Of a stretch of DNA of 64,000 nucleotides, positions 5,413-54,686 are shown piece by piece (positions within the stretch are counted from its first letter, which is position 1; each line of letters begins with the position of its first letter). Below the pieces are notes generated by a model. It had not been told where the DNA came from. It ran no database searches and worked only from the letters and a program-made list of their open reading frames with translations. Origin of the DNA: a virus; the IMG/VR virus record IMGVR_UViG_3300010413_000010, positions 1-64,000 of that record; one strand, written 5' to 3'. Both the position numbers and the translations under genes were made by a program.

Positions 5413-5985
5413 TTAAGCCCTCTTCTCGACTGCTACTGCAGGATCGATGAAGTAGAAGTCGCGGTTTGGCCCCTGGTTCCTCCCATTGTTTAAGAAGTTA
5501 CGGATGCACTTGGTGGATACTCCAGCGAATTTGGCAGCTTCTGTCATCGTCTTGAAGTGTCGAATTACTCCTGTCCCAGCGATAAGTACATCGACAGGGC
5601 GGGGTTTGTTTTGATTCTTGTTGCCTTTCATCGAATTGAGCCCCGTTTCCCTGGCGTGACGGGCGTTTTCCTTCTCTGTAACCCACTCAAGGTTGGTGGC
5701 ACTGTTGTCGTATTTATCACCGTTTTTGTGGTTTACACAGGGCTTATTCTCTGGGTTCGGGACGAAAGCCAGGGCAACAAGCTTATGAATAAATGTTGCC
5801 CACTCGTGGGGGTTGCTCTTCAGCCGGATTCTGTAGTAGCCGGTGTTATTGGTTTTGTCCGGTTTCATGAAGTTCCCTCTACGGGTGTTTTTTACTCTTC
5901 CAAGAGAAGAAACGTGGTAGTGCTCATAGTGTTCGGCTGGGACGGGTCTCCATTCTTCTGGTTTTAAAATGCTTTTAGTTTCCAC
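5413..5985 (-). CDS. HNH homing endonuclease with NUMOD4 and NUMOD1-like parts
   Basis: 190 aa. From the N terminus: a NUMOD4-like segment (EEWRPVP ... YHVSSLGRVKN), an HNH core (VNHKNGDKYDNSATNLEWV), then a NUMOD1-like DNA-recognition helix (EAAKFAGVSTKCIRNFL). It is a free-standing selfish endonuclease, not inside another gene. Start: GTG 5985 has AAGGAGG 5 nt before it. An ATG at 6069 in the same frame lacks a ribosome site. The long leader upstream contains a terminator-like hairpin (6087-6127). Confidence 0.85.
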   Translation of the reverse strand: METKSILKPEEWRPVPAEHYEHYHVSSLGRVKNTRRGNFMKPDKTNNTGYYRIRLKSNPHEWATFIHKLVALAFVPNPENKPCVNHKNGDKYDNSATNLEWVTEKENARHARETGLNSMKGNKNQNKPRPVDVLIAGTGVIRHFKTMTEAAKFAGVSTKCIRNFLNNGRNQGPNRDFYFIDPAVAVEKRA

Positions 5986-6086
5986 CTCTTCCTCCTTAAA
6001 ACCACCCCTGAGATGGAGGTGGCCTTTAAGCCGGGTGAGGTGGTTTAGTTGTGAGATTGTTTTGCCCAACGTGGGGCCTGATAGTG

Positions 6087-7196: not shown

Positions 7197-7460
7197 ATGA
7201 CGTGTGCTAATTGTGGAAGAGAATGTGGGGGAGCTCCTGCCGGATTTTACACCGACAGCCATTACTACTGTATGGCATGTGAGTCTGCAGCACTGCAGCG
7301 CCGGATGTTTGAACGTTCCTTCGGGAGACCGAAGAATTACTTCAAGTTATCTTATGAAACTCAATGGGACATCGATGATAAACTCGGTATCTTGGACTGG
7401 GACGAAAAGATTCTGACTCCAGAGGATCGAAAAAGGTTCGATGAGCATTATGATAAATAG
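7197..7460 (+). CDS. Zinc-binding small protein
   Basis: 87 aa. CANC-x-C near the N terminus and CMAC about residue 27 form a treble-clef or ribbon. The C-terminal part ends DRKRFDEHYDK, similar to the first residues of the minus-strand protein at 9726-9935 (MDRKRFDEHVHY). GGGGAGA precedes the ATG. The last 20 bases overlap the macro-domain gene, indicating coupling. Confidence 0.6.
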   Translation: MTCANCGRECGGAPAGFYTDSHYYCMACESAALQRRMFERSFGRPKNYFKLSYETQWDIDDKLGILDWDEKILTPEDRKRFDEHYDK

Positions 7461-7902
7461 CGAAGTAACTGGAGACCTCTTAAAGTGTGCTGAAGAAGGC
7501 CGATACGATCTGATAGTTCATGGCTGTAACTGCTTTCATACTATGGGGGCCGGGATCGCAAAGCAGATCAAAAAGCAATATCCTGGAGCGTACTTGGTGG
7601 ACATAAGTCATACCATTAAAAGTGATAGTTCCAAGCTTGGGTTTTATACTTTCTATGATACTGGGTATTTCCTAATTGTAAATGCGTACACTCAGTACGA
7701 TTTCAGAGGACGTAACAATGTTGATTACCGGGCGATCCGAACAGTGTTTGCACGGCTGAACCGGGATTACGCCGGTAAGATGGCCGGAATTCCCATGATC
7801 GGCGCCGGACTCGCCGGGGGAGATTGGGGTAGGATTGCGGCCATCATCAACCAAGTTACCCCTGATCTGAGTATAGAATTGGTGCGGTACAGGAGCGCAT
7901 GA
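7450..7902 (+). CDS. Macro-domain protein (first copy)
   Basis: 150 aa, a whole single macro domain. HGCNCFHTMGAGIAKQIKK is the ADP-ribose-binding loop of the Appr-1''-processing family, and GIPMIGAGLAGGDWGRI is the second phosphate-binding loop. Known members bind or hydrolyse ADP-ribose, its phosphate, or ADP-ribosyl groups on proteins and DNA. Start: ATG 7450 aligns residue for residue with the second copy (9147). ATG 7441 has a better ribosome site (AAAGG) and would add three residues. Inference: it could remove ADP-ribose marks made by host defence. Confidence 0.85.
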   Translation: MINSEVTGDLLKCAEEGRYDLIVHGCNCFHTMGAGIAKQIKKQYPGAYLVDISHTIKSDSSKLGFYTFYDTGYFLIVNAYTQYDFRGRNNVDYRAIRTVFARLNRDYAGKMAGIPMIGAGLAGGDWGRIAAIINQVTPDLSIELVRYRSA

Positions 7903-9146: not shown

Positions 9147-9641
9147 ATGATTAAAAACATTATAAAAGGTGATTTAATTGAGTATGCAGAGAAGGGACGT
9201 TACGACATGATTGTGCATGGATGTAACTGTTTTCACAACATGGAAGCCGGTTTTGCGAGGCAGTTAATAACACGATATCCAGGCGTGTTCCGGGCCGACT
9301 GTGAGCAAACCAATAGCGGAGATCGAAAAAAGCTTGGGCGTCATACCAAGTTTCACACAGGGAAATTTCTAATAATTAACGCTTACACTCAATTTTCTTA
9401 TGGCGGAGAACGGGACATATACTACCCGGCACTGTCTAGAGTGTTTTATGACTTAAACCATCAGTATCCGGGTACAAAGGTGGGAATCCCGAAAATAGGG
9501 ACGGGCATAGCCGGTGGGGATTGGGACATTATTTCCGAACTAATAAATGCTACTACCTCCAACCTCGATATCGAAGTAATTGAGCCACGGGTGAAGAAGT
9601 CAAAGCTTATGGAGAGTATGGCTTCCTTAGTGGGGGGTTAA
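9147..9641 (+). CDS. Macro-domain protein (second copy), leaderless
   Basis: 164 aa. The macro fold is clear: VHGCNCFHNMEAGFARQL and GIPKIGTGIAGGDWDIISEL. In the first loop the usual Met-Gly-Ala-Gly-Ile is Met-Glu-Ala-Gly-Phe, a change in the part that contacts the distal ribose, so activity or ligand may differ from the copy at 7450. A basic C-terminal tail of about 20 residues is extra. Independently promoted and leaderless. Inference: functional divergence after duplication. Confidence 0.85.
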   Translation: MIKNIIKGDLIEYAEKGRYDMIVHGCNCFHNMEAGFARQLITRYPGVFRADCEQTNSGDRKKLGRHTKFHTGKFLIINAYTQFSYGGERDIYYPALSRVFYDLNHQYPGTKVGIPKIGTGIAGGDWDIISELINATTSNLDIEVIEPRVKKSKLMESMASLVGG

Positions 9642-11316: not shown

Positions 11317-11345
11317 TTGACGTGAGCAAAATTGTCTGGTATAAT
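11317..11345 (+). promoter_or_regulatory. Strong promoter of a short transcript
   Basis: TTGACG (11317-11322), exactly 17 nt, TGG-TATAAT (hexamer 11340-11345). It is followed after about 35 nt by an intrinsic terminator, with no gene between. Confidence 0.75.
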
Positions 11346-11351
11346 TACACA

Positions 11352-11418
11352 AAAGTCCTTTATGGCCTTTTTGTTGTTTTAACCGCCGGAGTGTTACTCT
11401 GGCGGTTATTTTTTTATT
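11352..11418 (+). ncRNA. Candidate small RNA or attenuated leader
   Basis: Predicted RNA of about 65 nt from the promoter at 11317-11345 to the T-run after the AACCGCC/GGCGGTT hairpin. It contains a possible six-codon ORF, MAFLLF (11363-11383), whose stop abuts the hairpin and which has no ribosome site. It could be a regulatory RNA or a leader that lets some transcription through into the MazEF-like gene. Confidence 0.45.
11381..11418 (+). terminator. Intrinsic terminator
   Basis: AACCGCC (11381-11387), 13-nt loop, GGCGGTT (11401-11407), then ATTTTTTTATT. It separates the STAS-like genes and the short transcript from the MazEF-like gene. Confidence 0.8.
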
Positions 11419-11422
11419 CTTC

Positions 11423-11456
11423 TTGCAATTGGAATATAATTATAATATAATTATAT
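11423..11456 (+). promoter_or_regulatory. Promoter with 23-bp palindromic operator
   Basis: TTGCAA (11423-11428), 17 nt, TATAAT (11446-11451). A perfect palindrome (11-bp arms ATATAATTATA / TATAATTATAT around one base) covers 11434-11456, including the whole -10 box. Its position is that of an operator for the MazE/AbrB-type domain encoded 24 nt downstream, as expected for autoregulation. Confidence 0.7.
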
Positions 11457-11479
11457 CTGAGCGAGAATGTGGAGGTATG

Positions 11480-11959
11480 ATGGAAACGTTTGAAGTAACG
11501 CTGCGTAAATGGGGAGATTCTCTAGGGATGACTCTCCCATTCTCACTACGAGAGTCCCTGGGCCTGTCGGCTGGGGACAAACTCATTCTTACCGCTACGG
11601 ATGAAGGCTTTACTGTTGCTACAGTAAAGGGTGAGTGGCTGGACGATTACAGGACAAGTGACCCGATTGTAGATGTAGATACAGGTGATTACATAAATGT
11701 CGGGGGGTCCCAGTACATGGTGTTATCAGCTAAAACCTACCATAGTCAGACTGGTCGAGCCCTTTGTGCTCCAATAGTTGGACAGGCAGGAAAGAAACCT
11801 GCACTAGCTGACGGCGCCGGACAGTTTATTCTTTTGGATGAGATTGAGACAGTTGGGCTAGGGCCAACATCTGAGAAGATTAAAAAACTAAAAATGAAGT
11901 GTAACCGAGCGGTTTTAAAGGAGGTATTAAACAGAGTTTCAGAAATCATTGCTCGGTAG
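11480..11959 (+). CDS. MazE-MazF-like fusion protein
   Basis: 159 aa. Residues about 1-48 are a MazE/AbrB swapped-hairpin domain (TLRKWGDSLGMTLPFSLRES, then LSAGDKLIL). Residues about 60-155 follow the MazF/PemK fold: DTGDYINV, then YMVLSAKTYHSQTGRALCAPI, ILLDEIETV and a C-terminal helix. MazF is an endoribonuclease and MazE its antitoxin and DNA-binding partner, normally separate. The MazF beta1-beta2 loop with the catalytic arginine is shortened, and the usual Pro-x-Thr is Pro-Ile-Val, so the RNase may be inactive. Start at ATG 11480 (GGAGG 4 nt away); ATG 11477 is too close. Confidence 0.75.
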   Translation: METFEVTLRKWGDSLGMTLPFSLRESLGLSAGDKLILTATDEGFTVATVKGEWLDDYRTSDPIVDVDTGDYINVGGSQYMVLSAKTYHSQTGRALCAPIVGQAGKKPALADGAGQFILLDEIETVGLGPTSEKIKKLKMKCNRAVLKEVLNRVSEIIAR

Positions 11960-11985: not shown

Positions 11986-12885
11986 TTGTTTATCGAATAT
12001 ACAACAAAAAGGTTTAACAGATCGTCGTTGGAAATAATTGACCACGCCAACGAGATCATCGCTGATTATGACAATCGGGGGCTGATGCTGACGCTACGAC
12101 AGCTTTATTATCAGTTCGTCGCGCGGGGCTACATTGAGAATACGGAACGATCTTACAAGCGGATCGGGAACATCATCAGTGACGCTCGGTTGGCTGGACT
12201 GCTATCGTGGACAGCTATAGAAGATCGTACTCGAAATTTGAGTCGGGTTTCTACATGGGATTCTCCCAGCCACATCATGGGTGCGGTCATCAAGCAGTTC
12301 AAACTGGATAAGTGGGCCAACCAGCCGAACATGGTCGAGGTCTGGGTTGAGAAGGAAGCTCTCTCCGGGGTTGTCGAACAGGCCTGTCGTCCATACCAGA
12401 CTCCCTATTTTGCTTGCCGTGGCTACGTGTCACAGTCCGAAATGTGGAGAGCTGCCGAGAGGTTTTACCGGTACGCTAAAGAAGGGAAGGACGTTTACGT
12501 TCTCCACTTAGGCGACCATGACCCGTCCGGGATAGACATGACCCGCGACATTATGGACCGGCTGGAGACCTTTGAAGATTTTTCGACTTTAGTTGAGAGA
12601 GAGGCCCTGAACTTTAATCAAATCGAAGAGCTTCAGCCCCCTCCCAATCCTGCAAAGACCACTGACAGTCGTTTCAAGGATTATAAGGCGAAGTACGGGG
12701 AAGAGAGCTGGGAGCTCGATGCATTGGACCCTCAATATCTTATTGATCTCATTCAGAACTACATCGACAACCTTCTGGACCGTGACCTCTGGAATGAAGG
12801 ATTGGAACAGGAGAAAAAAGCCATTGCGACTCTGGAGGACGTTGAGGCAAGTATTGATGAAGACTGGGAGGCCGATGATGAGTGA
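11986..12885 (+). CDS. TOPRIM protein related to topoisomerase VI subunit A / Spo11
   Basis: 299 aa. The N-terminal part has a winged-helix pattern with LMLTLRQLYYQFVARGYI, which carries a tyrosine where Spo11/TopoVIA have the catalytic one. A TOPRIM domain follows: the glutamate in WVEKEALSG (about residue 119) and the LGDHDPSGIDM metal-binding motif (about 178-188). Such proteins occur in phages without TopoVIB; their role is unproven. Start TTG 11986 with AAGGGGGA 5 nt upstream. It overlaps the next gene. Confidence 0.75.
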   Translation: MFIEYTTKRFNRSSLEIIDHANEIIADYDNRGLMLTLRQLYYQFVARGYIENTERSYKRIGNIISDARLAGLLSWTAIEDRTRNLSRVSTWDSPSHIMGAVIKQFKLDKWANQPNMVEVWVEKEALSGVVEQACRPYQTPYFACRGYVSQSEMWRAAERFYRYAKEGKDVYVLHLGDHDPSGIDMTRDIMDRLETFEDFSTLVEREALNFNQIEELQPPPNPAKTTDSRFKDYKAKYGEESWELDALDPQYLIDLIQNYIDNLLDRDLWNEGLEQEKKAIATLEDVEASIDEDWEADDE

Positions 12886-17936: not shown

Positions 17937-19636
17937 TGGGTCTTGAATTACTAGACAATTTGAAAGTTGGAGATGAGGTAGACTTCGACATATGGGCAGT
18001 TCACCCTGATTACAGCGATATGGCAGATGAATGGCAGAAATGCCGGGACTGCTATATCGGAGAACGGGCTGTTAAGGCAGCCAAGCTAGACGACAACAGC
18101 CTCCCAGGAACACGGTATCTACCTTCTTTAACCGAACAGACTACGGCTGAATATAATGCTTATCGAGATCGTGCGCAGTGGTACGGGGCCACCTCACGTA
18201 CAGTTGATGCTTACTTAGGTATGATTTTCAGGAAGCCGGTGAGCTTCAGAGCCCGGCACGACGACAACGAAGACAAAGAGCTGGATAAATTCATCGAAAA
18301 GTACCTCGACTCAATGGCAGTCGATGGGAAGAACATGAATGAATTCAGCCATGAGGTAACAGAAGAAATCATTGTTACCAATCGAGTAGGTATTTTAATT
18401 GACGCCCCTGAAAGCGGAGATTTGCCTCCGACTCTGGCAGAAATTGAAGCTAAGGGGATTTTCCCTCGTTTATCTCTCTACAAGACGGAATCGATTATTA
18501 ACTGGCATATCGTTCAGGAAAAGGGGAAAGATATTCCTGTCCTCTTTGTTCTGTACGAGCCAGAGGAGATGTTCGAAACCGATACGTTACGGACAACTCT
18601 GATTGATTCATTTCGGGTACTGTACTTGGAGAACTGGGAAACTCCTGGATTACGACGGTACAAACAGATACGGTTTCGTGTCCTTTCCGACAGGCATGGC
18701 CGGAAAGAAAAGTTAGAGGTCAGCTCAGTTGCTTATCCCTCTGTACTGGGAAAACCACTGGACCATATTCCGTTTTATATTTTGACCGATCAAGGGCTTG
18801 ATTACAAGCGGATTAGGCCACCGATGATATCCCCGCTTTCTACTGTGAATATTGGCCATTATCGCAACTCAGCTGACCTCGAACACGAGTGTCATATGGT
18901 GGCCCTGAAAACTCTAGTTTTCCCTGGCTGGGACAGGAAGACCTATGGGAACCCGAAAGTTGGTGGAGCGATGGCTGTCCCGAAAGACTGCGTTGTGCAA
19001 CTTTTAGAGCCTTCTAGTGATTCGTCGATCAGAGACGAGATGGTGTTGAAGGAAGCCAGGCTCGCGGTTCTAGGAGCCGAACGTATATCACAGAAACAAA
19101 GATACCTACCTTCAGCTAGTGTTGCTGAGATTACCGCTTCTGCCGAAGCCTCAGTAATTCAGAACTTCCTGACATCCTTAAATCTCGCCATGAATACTGT
19201 GGTCACTGCTGCCATTGCATGGGCGAAACCTACATGGCCGGAATGGGAAGATGGTGAGCTGAATGTTCAGTGCATTATTAACACCGACCTTGCGGACAAT
19301 GCGCTCACAGGGGCCGACTTAGTTAACTTCATCAAAGCCTACCAGCAGGGCGGTATCAGCCTAGATACTCTCTACTACAACTTGGAACGCCGGGAAATCT
19401 ATCCCGCCGGTTGGAGCAAAGAGAAGGAAATTGAGAGTCTCCATAAGACCAGAGACCTTATTCTGGATGCAGCTATGGAGAAAATTGTCAACGGAGAAAC
19501 TGAAAATCCCTATTTCCCCCAGACAGAGACTGATGATAAATCAAGCTCCGGGGACAAGCAAACCTCTTCGGAGGGAAGAGGGGATGACCAGTCCGTTCAG
19601 GCTATCGGTACGAAGGCCAGAGTTAGGCGGTCATAA
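17936..19636 (+). CDS. Portal protein (DUF4055 type)
   Basis: 566 aa. Full-length DUF4055-family portal: TVDAYLGMIFRKPV near the start, the domain stretch EIIVTNRVGILIDAP, and a C-terminal helical crown. It forms the dodecameric ring through which DNA enters. A polar, Ser/Gly/Asp-rich tail of about 40 residues is at the C terminus. Overlaps terminase and minor head genes by one to a few bases. Confidence 0.88.
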   Translation: MGLELLDNLKVGDEVDFDIWAVHPDYSDMADEWQKCRDCYIGERAVKAAKLDDNSLPGTRYLPSLTEQTTAEYNAYRDRAQWYGATSRTVDAYLGMIFRKPVSFRARHDDNEDKELDKFIEKYLDSMAVDGKNMNEFSHEVTEEIIVTNRVGILIDAPESGDLPPTLAEIEAKGIFPRLSLYKTESIINWHIVQEKGKDIPVLFVLYEPEEMFETDTLRTTLIDSFRVLYLENWETPGLRRYKQIRFRVLSDRHGRKEKLEVSSVAYPSVLGKPLDHIPFYILTDQGLDYKRIRPPMISPLSTVNIGHYRNSADLEHECHMVALKTLVFPGWDRKTYGNPKVGGAMAVPKDCVVQLLEPSSDSSIRDEMVLKEARLAVLGAERISQKQRYLPSASVAEITASAEASVIQNFLTSLNLAMNTVVTAAIAWAKPTWPEWEDGELNVQCIINTDLADNALTGADLVNFIKAYQQGGISLDTLYYNLERREIYPAGWSKEKEIESLHKTRDLILDAAMEKIVNGETENPYFPQTETDDKSSSGDKQTSSEGRGDDQSVQAIGTKARVRRS

Positions 19637-20604
19637 TGACTAAAACCGAGGAGCTACTTGAGAAGACAATAGCCCTCGATGTTCTACGAGACCAAGTGTC
19701 TGAAGATTTCTATCAGACACTTCTTGTAGCGTATCAGCGGTTAATCAGGCGGGTTTCTCGGATATTATCCCCCGAGTTCGGGGTTGAGTTGACGTTATCC
19801 GAGAGACGGATAATCAAGAAAGAAGTCGCTGAAGAGATCAAACTTTACCGGGAAGAGCTTACTTATTTGGCAGAAAGCAACTTGGAGGAATTCGTCGGCA
19901 CTTTCTACGGGACCGAAAAGAGTATTGCTAATGAGGTAAAAGAAGAAGACTACAAGGACAAAGCTGGTCTGTTCACTGGCTTCCTTACTAAATACCACGC
20001 TATAGAACGCGGAAAAGTTGTGCAGATTGAGGCATTACTAAAAGCGCATATTGCGCTCCTCACCAGCGATCTTGAACAATTGATCAATAGGACTGGGGTG
20101 GTTGTAGAAGATGAACCTGTGGTCAAGACCTACTTTTCCCAGGCAGCTTTAAAAAATCAGAACAACCTCAATTCTATTGCACTGACTGCTGTTGCTATGG
20201 CAGCGGCTCATGCAAGACAGATGTTCCTGAAAGCGAATAAGAAGTATTTTCGCGGGTATCAATGGGTCAGTATTTTGGATGGGAAAACGTCTGACTACTG
20301 TCAGTTCCGGCACCTTAAAGTTTGGTACTGGGATGATCCAGAAAAATCTACTCTCCCTGCTGAAGAGTATCCTCCAGGGCATTACCGTTGTCGATCTGGC
20401 ACGGCTTCCATCTTCAAGGGAGAGGAGGCTGTACAGACTCCGACCTATGCCGAGTGGCTCGAAAGACAACCGGAAGAGCTCCAGAAAGAAATTTTAGGTG
20501 TTCGCCGGTTTGCGCTCTATAAAGCAGGGAAACTCGATTTGGCGGATTTACATACTGTTTCAGGGCAGCGCCGGACTATTTCGGACTTAAAAAAGCTGTT
20601 TTGA
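19636..20604 (+). CDS. Minor head protein (SPP1 gp7 / Mu F-like)
   Basis: 322 aa. The C-terminal signature DGKTSDYCQFRHLKVWYW and YPPGHYRCRSGTASIF is the gp7/GpF head-morphogenesis motif with conserved Cys and His. Such proteins associate with the portal and take part in early DNA ejection or head assembly. It directly follows the portal gene, as in SPP1. Confidence 0.85.
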   Translation: MTKTEELLEKTIALDVLRDQVSEDFYQTLLVAYQRLIRRVSRILSPEFGVELTLSERRIIKKEVAEEIKLYREELTYLAESNLEEFVGTFYGTEKSIANEVKEEDYKDKAGLFTGFLTKYHAIERGKVVQIEALLKAHIALLTSDLEQLINRTGVVVEDEPVVKTYFSQAALKNQNNLNSIALTAVAMAAAHARQMFLKANKKYFRGYQWVSILDGKTSDYCQFRHLKVWYWDDPEKSTLPAEEYPPGHYRCRSGTASIFKGEEAVQTPTYAEWLERQPEELQKEILGVRRFALYKAGKLDLADLHTVSGQRRTISDLKKLF

Positions 20605-50722: not shown

Positions 50723-50962
50723 TTATAATTCGTCGCAGTAGATCGGAGTTCGTTCCCCGTAGTAGGCTCCGGCGATGTTGTAGTCGAAGTAGTCAATCGC
50801 GTTATCAATCCCCATGTCTTTCTCAAGCTGGGAGATTATTCTGTTGGAGGAGTAGATGAGCCTTTCATTTTGTATATCAACACCAATGATGGCATCGTCG
50901 CGCCCAGTAAGAAAAACGAAAGGAATTCCAGGGTAACGGTCTTTTACATCTTGGATTGTCAT
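50723..50962 (-). CDS. Hypothetical phage protein
   Basis: 79 aa. The C-terminal DYFDYNIAGAYYGERTPIYC matches a common small phage protein often found near nucleotide-metabolism genes and of unknown role. Start overlaps the ribonucleotide reductase stop (TAATG). Confidence 0.65.
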   Translation of the reverse strand: MTIQDVKDRYPGIPFVFLTGRDDAIIGVDIQNERLIYSSNRIISQLEKDMGIDNAIDYFDYNIAGAYYGERTPIYCDEL

Positions 50963-52122
50963 TAGGTTACCTCACACCCCCCGCCACCACAGGCAGCTTC
51001 GGCTTGGAGACTGGTTGTATCTGCATCTTCAATCACTTGGGTGAGATCAATCTGTTTAAGAACCTCGACGCGTTTTTCGAACTCTTCCTTAGAAATATCT
51101 TCAAAAGGAGCCTGAGTGTATGTCCCGCCATCATAAGGAAGAACAGAAATAGCAGTGAAGTCTTCCCGGTTATCCCACATCCACTCCGCTACTTCAGCCC
51201 ACTCGTCAGGCCGAACACTGATTGTGCAGGAGACGTTATTCCGGTTGTCACCTTCTACATGACCGGGCTTCACCCACTCCACGTTGAAACGCCGTACCCG
51301 GCGTAAGGTGCCCAAAGCGGTCTCAGTTCTCAGAACGGCATGATCAGGAGCCTTCTGAGGTACAGTGATGACGGCCATAGTCTCCGGCCGAAACTTCTCA
51401 TCCTCGACGAGCTCAGGGTGGAGGAGAGATAAGTAGCTGTAGATAGCTTCGTTCTTCCCGACCCGGATACGTCTGAGATAGTAATCATTGTGCCAAGCAT
51501 GGACCCCGGAGGAGGTTCCACATACCAACGAAGCAGTTCCTTCGGGCTTGATCGCTGTAGTTCTGGCAGCAGGATTGATGCCAATAGCATGAGCAGTAAG
51601 GGTGTTCATATCCTTTACTTCTTTTGCAACCGTAGCCAGGTCAAGGTTGTCTACCCGGCCGGAGGCGATGCCAGTCATGGATACGCCGATGAGGGCTTCC
51701 TCTTCTGTTGTCTCCTTCCACTTGGCTCCAAGATAATGGAAGTCAGTGTAGGATGCTTGAAGGGTCGCAATGAAGGATGCAGCCCGAGCTCGTTTATTGA
51801 GATCGTCCTGATCCTCAACATCGGAAGCATTGATGGTTACGAGATTGCAAAATTGATGGCTACGGAGAGAAATTTCCCCGCACGGATTAAGCCCCCAGTC
51901 CGTGTTGTCAGTGAACATCACACCAGGCTCTCCAGCACCAGAGGCTTTCACACGATCCCAGACTTTAAGGAATTCTTCCTGGGTGATCTTATTTCTCTCC
52001 ATCACAACGGTGTTGTTAGCTCGTCCACGGTGGGAGTGGAGTTCCCACCAGTTGCCGGACTTACAGGTCAACATCTCGTAATCGTCGAGAGAGAAGAGGG
52101 AGATCATTGCTGCTCTACGAAT
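50962..52122 (-). CDS. nrdJ: Ribonucleotide reductase class II (NrdJ), exon 2
   Basis: 387 codons including the stop, in phase 0. Joins exon 1 (53077-53799) to give 627 aa. It carries the active-site cysteine loop NPCGEISLRSHQFCN, then AIKPEGTASLVCGTSSG and the C-terminal redox pair ACGGGGCEV. Class II enzymes use adenosylcobalamin to reduce ribonucleoside (tri)phosphates. Length is shorter than the monomeric 739-residue Lactobacillus enzyme. Read alone it would start at ATG 52107, but the reading frame extends upstream to the intron edge. Confidence 0.9.
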   Translation of the reverse strand: MRRAAMISLFSLDDYEMLTCKSGNWWELHSHRGRANNTVVMERNKITQEEFLKVWDRVKASGAGEPGVMFTDNTDWGLNPCGEISLRSHQFCNLVTINASDVEDQDDLNKRARAASFIATLQASYTDFHYLGAKWKETTEEEALIGVSMTGIASGRVDNLDLATVAKEVKDMNTLTAHAIGINPAARTTAIKPEGTASLVCGTSSGVHAWHNDYYLRRIRVGKNEAIYSYLSLLHPELVEDEKFRPETMAVITVPQKAPDHAVLRTETALGTLRRVRRFNVEWVKPGHVEGDNRNNVSCTISVRPDEWAEVAEWMWDNREDFTAISVLPYDGGTYTQAPFEDISKEEFEKRVEVLKQIDLTQVIEDADTTSLQAEAACGGGGCEVT

Positions 52123-53076
52123 CGTTTACCCCTACGTTTCCATAGGGAACGGACTATCTCTTAACTCTTCTGAGCCTCGGATTTCTTGGAGAGGTTATTG
52201 TGTCGTCTACTCACTCTCTAGTCTCTGAACCTTCCTGTTACTTTTATGACGTTCACAGGAGTGGTAACGGATTGCCATATCGTTAGACTTAGGTTTCCCG
52301 TTTTAACCCGATTAGGTGGCCTTCGTAGTTTAGGCAGCAGGTTGGAGAGCGGCTTTGTATTCGTTCAGAAACATCGACGCTTTCCTTTGTTTTCTATGAT
52401 TGAATAATACAGAAGGCTCGGCATAGAGCCATTCGACAAACGCAGCAACCCGCGCCATGTTACCAAACTTCAAGTCGTAACAGGCTTCATCCCTACGAGG
52501 GCGCACGGTCGTAGCAATGTTTAGCTCCTCTTCCATAATCCTTTGTATAGAGGATAAGAACTCGAAGCTGCTGTGGGTGAATCCAATATTTGCCCAAAGC
52601 CGGTCCCGGTCTTTCCGGTGCCCATAACTTATATGACCGTCCGCATCGAAGAACCCACGGAGATAATGCCTCATCAGGTTCCGGGGGATATTCACAATCC
52701 TTCGGTCGTTTTTCAAACCCAACACACCATACTTATTGAAAAGAGGGGAAAATTTAGAACTAAAGGCTAGTGTTGCAGTTTTTTTCTCCGTCTTAATGTT
52801 GTACTTCTTGTTGATCGTTACTTTATAATTAACTGCTGTGTCGGGGCAGTATAAGCGCTGAAACATTTCAATAAGATATGTATCCACAGAACTCACACTG
52901 AGACGGGCTTTGCGTTTATGAGTAGGTTGATTAAAAATACCATCCCCGGCTAAGTAGCCGATGAGGTAGGCAGACTCTGGGTCGAGTTTGTCGAAAATAT
53001 TCAATCTGTATTTCTTTGCATTTATAAGATACTCTTTCATTTCTGATTTTCTCCTGTATTATGTTATTTAGAGCTG
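52123..53076 (-). other. Group I intron in nrdJ
   Basis: 954 nt. The 5' exon ends GGTGGT and the intron ends in G, as for group I introns. GCCACC (52315-52320, minus strand) can pair with GGUGGU to form P1 with a U.G pair at the splice site. GTTCAGAGACTA (52219-52230) and AAGAGATAGTCC (52151-52162) look like the R and S strands of P7. The endonuclease ORF fills the loop between the 5' splice site and the guide sequence. Exons join to ADAVLAGG-IRRAAMISLF, the conserved NrdJ sequence. Confidence 0.9.
52330..53040 (-). CDS. LAGLIDADG homing endonuclease in the intron
   Basis: 236 aa. Two LAGLIDADG motifs: AYLIGYLAGDGIF about residue 25 and HYLRGFFDADGHI about residue 129, each supplying a catalytic aspartate. 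Double-motif enzymes act as monomers. It presumably cuts intron-less nrdJ at the splice-junction sequence and so spreads the intron. The ORF ends 10 nt before the P1 guide sequence. Confidence 0.92.
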   Translation of the reverse strand: MKEYLINAKKYRLNIFDKLDPESAYLIGYLAGDGIFNQPTHKRKARLSVSSVDTYLIEMFQRLYCPDTAVNYKVTINKKYNIKTEKKTATLAFSSKFSPLFNKYGVLGLKNDRRIVNIPRNLMRHYLRGFFDADGHISYGHRKDRDRLWANIGFTHSSFEFLSSIQRIMEEELNIATTVRPRRDEACYDLKFGNMARVAAFVEWLYAEPSVLFNHRKQRKASMFLNEYKAALQPAA

Positions 53077-53799
53077 ACCACCAGCTAAGACGGCATCTGC
53101 CAGATGGCACTGGATGTCGTGGACCTCGATGGGTTTAAGTTTCGTTCCAGAACCTCGCTCCTGAAGGGCCGTCTCGAAAACATTTTTAACCTGAACTAAA
53201 GCTTCCCTGAGAGGTTCGGGGCCGGGTGCTTTCCCTCCCGAGGTTATGAGCTCGGCACCTTTCGGCCGGATAGATCGAAAATCGAAATCGATTTCATTCT
53301 TTCCATAAAAGTAGGATTCTACCAGGACACGAATAGCTTCGGCCCAGCCTTCAATGGAATCCGGGATGAGGTAACGCTTTCGTCGATTTTTGTTCACACC
53401 TTGAACAGTAGGCAGGGCTGCTACATGCTGCCGCTGTACCGAGTACCCAACGCCGGTTCCAGATAAAAGGAGGAACATCGTCTCCCAAAACACACTGGGG
53501 TCATCCGCGTTTCGGAATGAACAGTTATATAACCGCACAGGGTTAACCTCGATGGCCTGTCCAGCGAACTGGATCGATCTCATAGAAGGGAGGATTTTCT
53601 TTGGTCGGACATAGACCTCATAGGCCAAGTCGATTTCGTTTTCAAGTTTCGGGAATCGTTTCAAGTGCATCGCCTTGTTGCGATCCACGATTTCATCCCA
53701 GGTCTCTCGTCTTTTTTTAATTGGCAGGTATCGGGCATACTTCATGAATGCGGTTAAACCGCTGAGGATATCCCGAGCAAGCTGCTCCTGTGTAAGCAT
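53077..53799 (-). CDS. nrdJ: Ribonucleotide reductase class II (NrdJ), exon 1
   Basis: 241 codons. Start ATG 53799 with AAGGAG 6 nt upstream; an in-frame upstream ATG at 53952 has none. Includes PSMRSIQFAG, LYNCSFRNADDPSVFWE and LLLSGTGVGYSVQ, hallmarks of class II reductases. Unspliced RNA would add only two residues before TAA, giving an inactive fragment. Splicing joins GGT to ATT of exon 2. Confidence 0.92.
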
Positions 53800-53939
53800 A
53801 TTAGCTCCTTGTGAGTAAAATTGTGTATGTGTTTCCGTGGAATTCCCCGGAACGGGGAGTAGAGGAAAGGCTTGTATTGTATCACGAACGGAGTTCCATC
53901 CGTGTCTCCCTGTTTTTTTGGGAAAGGAGAAAAGAGGGG

Positions 53940-53968
53940 TTGACACCCGCAACGTTACAGGTTATATT
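53940..53968 (+). promoter_or_regulatory. Consensus promoter of the HigBA-like module
   Basis: TTGACA (53940-53945), 17 nt, TATATT (53963-53968). AAGGAGG (53990-53996) precedes ATG 54001. It lies divergent from nrdJ, so the 200-nt gap also holds the nrdJ leader. Confidence 0.85.
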
Positions 53969-54000: not shown

Positions 54001-54285
54001 ATGATTGGAAACTTCAGCCATAAAGGTCTGAAGGCTTTCTATGAAAACAGTTCAGTTAAGGGGGTCGCCCCGGAGCATGTAGGTCGGATTGATAGGATTT
54101 TATCGATCTTAGATTCCGCGACAAGCCTACATGACATTCAAAGCTTCCAGAGTTTAGGGTGTCATAGATTGCAAAAGGGAGAACTGAGAGGTTTTTACGC
54201 TGTAAAAGTAACTGGGAGTTGGCGGATTGTCTTCCGGTTCGAACACGGGAAAGCCATCGACGTGGGGTACGTGCAGTACCACTGA
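54001..54285 (+). CDS. higB: HigB-type toxin (RelE/ParE fold)
   Basis: 94 aa. FSHKGLKAFYENSSVKGVAP start, CHRLQKGELRGFYAVKVTGS and WRIVFRFEHGKAIDVGYVQYH end: the standard HigB/plasmid-maintenance killer layout with its conserved Arg and His residues. HigB cleaves mRNA on the ribosome. Toxin-first order is typical of higBA. The coding sequence appears intact. Confidence 0.88.
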   Translation: MIGNFSHKGLKAFYENSSVKGVAPEHVGRIDRILSILDSATSLHDIQSFQSLGCHRLQKGELRGFYAVKVTGSWRIVFRFEHGKAIDVGYVQYH

Positions 54286-54308
54286 TCCGATTGGGAGAAC
54301 GGCGCGAT

Positions 54309-54326
54309 CCGGGGCTTCGGCCCCGG
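54309..54326 (+). terminator. UUCG-loop hairpin between toxin and antitoxin
   Basis: CCGGGGC-ttcg-GCCCCGG followed by AGTTCTT. A very stable stem with a weak T-run. If it stops transcription, the antitoxin would be made in lower amount than the toxin unless it has its own promoter (no clear one seen). Confidence 0.6.
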
Positions 54327-54377
54327 AGTTCTTATCCCGACTGAACTCTATAAGTAAAACTAATTAGGGGGTAAAAC

Positions 54378-54686
54378 ATGGCTAGGAGGAAACCGGAGCA
54401 TCCCGGTACTATTTTTAGGGAAGAGTTCCTTCAACCGCTGAAGATAACCGTCACTTCAGCTGCCGAACAATTGGGAGTTACACGTAAGACTCTCAGTGAA
54501 TTTCTGAATGAGAGGGCTGGCTGCTCTCCCGATATGGCTGTGCGTGTTGGACAGGCTACTGGGACTTCACCCCAGATGTGGCTGAACATGCAAACAAATC
54601 TTGACCTTTGGGTCTCTAGTCAAAAAGAAATAAATGTGATTCCTTTTGTACCGCATAATGAAAGTAGCATTATGTTAGAGGGATGA
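54378..54686 (+). CDS. higA: HigA-type antitoxin (HTH)
   Basis: 102 aa. HPGTIFREEFLQPLKITVTS, the helix-turn-helix SAAEQLGVTRKTLSEFLNER and MAVRVGQATGTSPQMWLNMQ match HigA. It binds HigB and represses the operon. TAGGGGGT lies before the ATG. The spacing to the toxin (92 nt) is longer than normal for a TA pair. Confidence 0.88.
   Translation: MARRKPEHPGTIFREEFLQPLKITVTSAAEQLGVTRKTLSEFLNERAGCSPDMAVRVGQATGTSPQMWLNMQTNLDLWVSSQKEINVIPFVPHNESSIMLEG

What the first reader, a model, noticed from the sequence alone, without database searches (positions are those of the whole stretch)
11423..11959. MazE-MazF-like fusion with a 23-bp palindrome over its own promoter
Antitoxin-type DNA-binding domain and toxin-type domain lie in one chain of 159 aa. 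The catalytic loop looks lost, so the MazF part may be a sensor or dimerisation unit. The perfect 11-1-11 palindrome covers the -10 box, as an autoregulatory operator would. This could be a phage repressor built from a TA module.
Basis: partly seen in the sequence, partly recalled or inferred. Interest (0 to 1): 0.65.

Follow-up and report, generated by a model that had tools for sequence, protein, structure and literature searches.

The report
Dead toxin-antitoxin fusion, phage regulator
A phage carries one protein that joins an antitoxin's DNA-binding part to a toxin whose cutting site has been erased, and the DNA sign in front of its gene recurs in front of the phage's recombinase gene and one other small gene, so it is probably a gene switch made from a toxin-antitoxin pair.

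Summary
Window 11480-11959 encodes a 159-aa protein: an N-terminal MazE/AbrB domain (Pfam E 8.7e-9) and a C-terminal MazF homologue. The MazF match is E 2.9e-9 against a 45-member MazF profile, above all shuffles, and an AlphaFold model matches MazF at Z about 11.9. The MazF half has lost every catalytic position (E24 deleted, R29->S, T52->V, R86->K) and the beta1-beta2 loop.

The 23-bp palindrome is real. It consists of two 10-bp palindromes (TATAATTATA) centred 11 bp apart over the -10 box. In the whole 98.6-kb phage record, ATAATTAT pairs at 11-bp spacing occur exactly three times, against none in 300 shuffles. They lie over this gene's own promoter, over the promoter of a tyrosine recombinase (24/24 bp identical, same distance from -35), and before a 62-codon ORF.

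Best reading: a domesticated, catalytically dead, single-chain MazEF acting as autorepressor and regulator of a small regulon in a phage with plasmid-like maintenance genes. DNA binding was not tested, and two invariant MazE DNA-contact residues are changed (N11->D, R16->T). The plasmid-borne inactive MtvT/MtvA pair is a two-protein precedent. No fused homologue was found.

The parts
11380..11415 (+). intrinsic terminator that insulates the gene from upstream transcription (13-bp stem, 3-nt loop, T run)
   Evidence: RNA fold z -5.9
11423..11428 (+). -35 box TTGCAA
11434..11456 (.). operator A: perfect 23-bp palindrome ATATAATTATA-A-TATAATTATAT; further copies at record 81815-81837 and 94248-94270, outside the window
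11435..11444 (.). 10-bp palindromic sub-site 1 (TATAATTATA)
   Evidence: sequence
11446..11455 (.). 10-bp palindromic sub-site 2 (TATAATTATA), 11 bp from sub-site 1
   Evidence: sequence
11446..11451 (+). -10 box TATAAT (17-bp spacer), inside the operator
11471..11475 (+). Shine-Dalgarno GGAGG
11480..11959 (+). gene of the MazE-MazF single-chain protein, 159 aa (160 aa if ATG 11477 is the start)
11492..11629 (+). MazE/AbrB swapped-hairpin domain (residues 6-51 in 160-aa numbering); contact residues W12 kept, N->D14, R->T19
11684..11956 (+). MazF-like domain (residues 70-160), beta1-beta2 loop deleted, catalytic residues lost, pI 9.4

Best explanation
The gene encodes a domesticated mazEF module: an antitoxin and a toxin joined in one chain, with the toxin's RNase site erased. 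Its MazE domain, as dimers, binds two 10-bp palindromes one helical turn apart. Its MazF-derived domain, which keeps the fold and is strongly basic, links or stabilises the dimers on DNA, as MazF does as co-repressor in MazEF. Bound over the -10 box it shuts off its own promoter and, through the other two operator copies, the phage's tyrosine recombinase and a small third gene. Shown here: fusion, MazF homology and fold, loss of the catalytic site, and three operator copies in the same record with fixed geometry. Inferred: that this protein is the one that binds, that binding represses, and that the MazF part supplies cooperativity. Covalent linkage would fix the antitoxin:toxin ratio and so remove the ratio sensing of ordinary TA autoregulation.
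For: MazE domain (E 8.7e-9), the only MazE-type match in the record. MazF homology and fold. Catalytic positions conserved in 43-45 of 45 MazFs are all gone, while several fold residues are kept. Operator: 3 exact tandem pairs of ATAATTAT at 11 bp, 0 in 300 shuffles, and the only tandem palindromic 8-mer at 9-14 bp in the record. The own and recombinase promoters share 24 identical bp at the same offset from -35, with unrelated flanks. Operator-to-start-codon distance is 16-23 nt at all three sites. The only other match of a standard repressor type found is a HigA-like HTH_3 protein with its own HigB partner, not near any operator copy. Precedent: MtvT/MtvA (PMC11826091), and MazE/MazF autorepression over the -10 region (PMC4803016, PMC9477884).
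Against: No binding or expression data. Two of the three E. coli MazE DNA-contact residues, invariant in 45 MazEs, are changed (N11->D, R16->T), so specificity has changed or binding is lost. Site C has a poor -35 box. No homologue exists in the collections searched, so neither protein nor operator conservation could be tested. An unrecognised DNA-binding protein of the phage could own the operator.
Confidence: 0.62

Rival explanations
1. Anti-toxin decoy: the dead MazF domain pairs with the host's MazF (mixed dimers) or with host MazE, and so dampens or triggers the host's mazEF during infection. DNA binding only controls its own dose.
For: Phage phi3T makes AimX and YosL, MazE mimics that bind MazF and steer lysis-lysogeny (PMC10769878). 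The MazF fold and C-terminal helix are kept. MazF is a dimer.
Against: It does not explain operator copies before the recombinase and the third gene. The host and its MazF are unknown.
Confidence: 0.12
2. The operator is real but belongs to another phage regulator. The fusion is only one of its three targets and has some other or no function.
For: MazE contact residues N11 and R16 are replaced. Other DNA-binding proteins exist (ParB-like, HigA-like), and many phage proteins match no family.
Against: MazE-family proteins typically bind a palindrome over the -10 box of their own gene, as found here. HigA's own gene has no operator copy.
Confidence: 0.17
3. Decaying relic: an accidental fusion of a mazEF operon, on its way to loss.
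For: No homologue found. Catalytic residues and loop lost; about a quarter identity to MazF.
Against: Intact frame, strong SD, insulated promoter, phage-like codon usage, fold residues kept while catalytic ones are selectively lost, operator kept exactly.
Confidence: 0.06
4. Active single-chain TA of the EzeT or CapRel kind: an autoinhibited toxin released by a trigger.
For: Single-chain TAs exist (PMC4826407; PMC9712102).
Against: All MazF catalytic positions are missing.
Confidence: 0.03

Closest known systems
MtvT/MtvA of Pseudomonas plasmid pPAD8 (PMC11826091)
   Same: A MazE-type DNA-binding antitoxin with a toxin partner that has no toxicity, on a mobile element; autorepresses and binds palindromes at several other promoters; the complex binds DNA better than the antitoxin alone.
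   Different: Two proteins, not one; different operator (TAACATTGTTA); conjugative plasmid and host targets, not a phage recombinase.
E. coli MazEF (PMC4803016; PDB 1ub4)
   Same: Same two domains in the same order; autorepression over the promoter with MazF as co-repressor.
   Different: Here one chain, RNase site erased, changed DNA-contact residues, different operator, extra targets.
EzeT and CapRel, single-chain toxin-antitoxin proteins (PMC4826407, PMC9712102)
   Same: Toxin and antitoxin functions in one polypeptide; EzeT probably arose by fusion of a two-gene operon.
   Different: They keep an active toxin and control it in cis; other toxin families; no regulon.
AimX/YosL of phage phi3T (PMC10769878)
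   Same: A phage makes MazEF-derived parts that act in its life-cycle decision.
   Different: These mimic MazE's C-terminal region and inhibit MazF; no DNA-binding MazE domain joined to a MazF fold.

Membership tests
MazE / SpoVT-AbrB swapped-hairpin DNA-binding domain (PF04014) | sequence match over the Pfam gathering score | tested here: met
   35.6 bits against cut-off 24.7, residues 10-54
MazE / SpoVT-AbrB swapped-hairpin DNA-binding domain (PF04014) | DNA-contact residues W9, N11, R16 (E. coli numbering) | tested here: not met
   W kept; N->D and R->T, both invariant in 45 of 45 MazEs. The domain is a member; its DNA specificity is expected to differ
MazF / PemK toxin fold (PF02452) | homology and fold | tested here: met
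   E 2.9e-9, above all shuffles; pLDDT 78, Z 11.9. The model used an alignment with MazF rows, so it is not independent of the sequence evidence; Pfam's own model does not ring
MazF endoribonuclease (function) | catalytic residues E24, R29, T52 and the beta1-beta2 loop | tested here: not met
   gap, S, V; R86 also K; loop about 11 residues shorter
Type II toxin-antitoxin system | two separate genes, antitoxin and active toxin | tested here: not met
   one frame without a stop; no PemK match elsewhere in the record
Autorepressing TA-type regulator | palindromic operator over its own promoter | tested here: met
Autorepressing TA-type regulator | the protein binds the operator and represses | not testable with these tools
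   needs EMSA, footprint or reporter
Phage-plasmid (lifestyle of the carrier) | plasmid replication and partition genes together with phage structural genes | tested here: inconclusive
   ParA, ParB-like, iteron-like repeats beside a 427-aa Rep-like protein that matches no family and no plasmid, terminase and portal. Circular replication not shown

The most novel reading that the evidence does not exclude
The fused, dead MazEF is a central maintenance switch of a phage with plasmid-like genes, and its MazF-like part is a sensor that exchanges subunits with the host's own MazE or MazF, so that the state of the host's toxin-antitoxin system sets recombinase expression and the phage's life-cycle choice.
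Probability: 0.12. Interest if true: 0.85.

Novelty: new variant of a known kind. Interest (0 to 1): 0.58.

Why it matters
Toxin-antitoxin modules are usually seen as addiction or defence devices. This would be a clean case of a whole module turned into a transcription factor by fusing the pair and erasing the enzyme. A covalent 1:1 chain with a two-site operator is a natural test of conditional cooperativity, since the ratio that normally tunes TA operons can no longer vary. It also gives an entry into how a phage with plasmid-like genes controls its recombinase.

Tried and rejected
Homologue searches: phages and plasmids by tblastn, viral contigs and genome contigs found no fusion. The two apparent full-length hits (L034, L081) are ordinary two-gene mazEF pairs lying in one frame across a stop; none of about 46 fetched mazEF pairs is fused. 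The operator was sought in viral contigs with two patterns, no match, and in all loci, where it occurs only in this record. Finding phage relatives through terminase or topoisomerase gave one 16.6-kb contig (L001) without the gene. Single-sequence AlphaFold was useless (pLDDT 35). Full-length alignments with MazE and MazF rows were misaligned by MAFFT, so only the C-terminal part was folded. I considered that the linker (residues 52-69) is a remnant of the MazE tail ending in VDTG before MazF's GD, which would place the fusion joint there; the resemblance is suggestive by eye but not significant (E 0.2), so it is not claimed.

Full report
What was checked. The window is the first 64,000 bases of a 98,634-base virus record. 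At the place named there is an open frame from TTG 11423 to 11959. The likely start is ATG 11480, 4 nt after the SD GGAGG (11471-11475), giving 159 aa; ATG 11477 gives 160 aa, and that numbering is used below. In-frame codon usage matches the phage's genes and the other five frames do not, so this is a gene, not a chance ORF.

N-terminal domain. Residues 10-54 match Pfam MazE_antitoxin (E 8.7e-9, above the cut-off), with weaker NCBIfam matches to addiction-module antidote and AbrB models. It is the only MazE-type match in the whole record. Of the residues by which E. coli MazE contacts DNA (W9, N11, R16; PMC4803016), W is kept but N is D and R is T. Both are invariant in 45 MazEs collected here. 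The fold is expected, but the DNA specificity should differ from that of ordinary MazE.

C-terminal domain. No library model recognises it. BLASTP against E. coli MazF aligns 76 columns at E 2e-5 as a single comparison. A profile from 28 MazFs scores it 17.4 bits against at most 6.9 in 5000 shuffles, and one from 45 MazFs gives 22.9 bits, E 2.9e-9, against at most 10.9. The match is colinear to the end of MazF. An AlphaFold model from an alignment with 17 MazF rows has pLDDT 78 and pTM 0.73 and matches MazF structures (Foldseek best E 2.8e-5; VIA-align Z 11.9, 92 residues). The MazF rows lean the model towards that fold, so it supports the sequence result but is not independent of it.

The toxin is dead. 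E24 (44 of 45), R29 (45 of 45), T52 (43 T and 2 S) and R86 (45 of 45) are deleted, S, V and K in this protein, and the beta1-beta2 loop that carries two of them is about 11 residues shorter. Several positions that serve the fold (G10, D11, V33, S35, Y39, P50, L74, D76) are kept. The roles of R29 and T52 follow PMC11394972. The MazF part is basic (pI 9.4), the MazE part acidic (4.7). In E. coli the basic flanks of the MazF dimer strengthen DNA binding (PMC4803016).

The operator. The perfect palindrome 11434-11456 is confirmed. It is two 10-bp palindromes, TATAATTATA, with centres 11 bp apart, about one helical turn. It covers the spacer and the -10 box of TTGCAA-17-TATAAT, just after a strong terminator (11380-11415). 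On its own this AT-rich palindrome could be chance at roughly 0.03-0.08% locally. The rest of the record settles the matter. ATAATTAT occurs six times in 98.6 kb, only as three pairs at exactly 11 bp. No other spacing from 9 to 29 bp has a pair with two mismatches or fewer. In 300 dinucleotide shuffles there was no pair, and no other palindromic 8-mer forms a tandem pair at 9-14 bp.

Site B (record 81815-81837) lies over the promoter of a 302-aa tyrosine recombinase (Phage_integrase E 1.9e-15). Read in the direction of transcription, its 24 bp are identical to site A, the -35 box TTGACT is at the same distance, and the flanks are unrelated. Site C (94248-94270) precedes a 62-codon ORF with SD GGAGGTG. 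There one sub-site is GATAATTATC, changed on both sides so that it stays a palindrome. Its -35 box is poor. Operator end to start codon is 16-23 nt in all three.

Who binds. The fusion is the best candidate: its gene carries site A over its own -10 box, as MazE-type regulators do. Among the 82 small and mid-sized phage proteins scanned (this one included), the only other standard repressor-type match shown was one HTH_3 protein, which sits beside a HigB-like toxin (54001-54683) without an operator copy. That table shows 25 of 36 families, and many proteins match nothing, so another binder is possible.

Mechanism proposed. Dimers through the MazE half occupy the two sub-sites on one face of the helix; the MazF halves join them or add contacts to DNA; RNA polymerase is kept from the -10 box of the fusion's own gene, of the recombinase and of the small ORF. 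In ordinary TA operons repression depends on the toxin:antitoxin ratio (PMC4803016); a single chain fixes that ratio. Steps shown: domains, dead active site, three operators. Steps inferred: binding, repression, role of the MazF half.

Setting. The record has terminase and portal genes, a family A DNA polymerase and DnaB helicase, a ParA ATPase, a ParB-like protein, and a 427-aa protein with iteron-like 21-bp repeats upstream. This suggests a phage maintained as a plasmid, but the Rep-like protein matches no family and no plasmid, so it stays a suggestion. Host unknown.

Comparison. The nearest precedent is MtvT/MtvA, an inactive plasmid TA pair whose MazE-type antitoxin autorepresses and binds palindromes at other promoters, better with its non-toxic partner (PMC11826091). 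EzeT and CapRel show that toxin and antitoxin can be one chain (PMC4826407; PMC9712102), but with an active toxin. AimX and YosL show phages using MazEF mimicry in lysis-lysogeny (PMC10769878). I found no report of a catalytically dead single-chain MazE-MazF regulator in the papers searched; subscription journals are mostly not held. No fused homologue turned up in any collection searched. Verdict: a new variant of a known kind, with solid anatomy and an untested function.

Noticed in passing
window 50962-53952 (-): A ribonucleotide reductase gene is split in two by a group I intron (Rfam RF00028, 52130-52416) with an endonuclease ORF (52330-53040).
   Followed up: partly
window 54001-54683 (+): A HigB-like toxin gene followed by an HTH_3 protein: an ordinary HigBA-type TA pair in the same phage.
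   Followed up: partly
window 11317-11416 (+): A strong promoter (TTGACG-17-TATAAT with TG) stands about 35 bp before the strong terminator, predicting a tiny transcript of about 65 nt just upstream of the fusion gene; it holds a 6-codon ORF (MAFLLF) without SD.
   Followed up: partly
record 81881-82018 and 83465-83760 (L030:17881-18018, 19465-19760): Three 15-bp repeats CTACCATTTGTTGTA between recombinase and Rep-like gene, and an iteron-like array with about 21-bp spacing upstream of the Rep-like gene.
   Followed up: no
window 7441-7902 and 9147-9641 (+): Two related macro-domain proteins close together.
   Followed up: no
window 5413-6069 (-): HNH homing endonuclease with NUMOD4 motif.
   Followed up: no
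record 94231 and 94360-94722 (L031): Operator C lies between a 62-codon ORF and a divergent DUF6876 gene with its own strong TTGACA/TATAGT promoter; neither function is known.
   Followed up: partly
window 11986-12885 (+): The next gene downstream is a topoisomerase-like protein (phrog_6247, E 3.2e-112), about 27 nt after the fusion gene and possibly co-transcribed with it.
   Followed up: no
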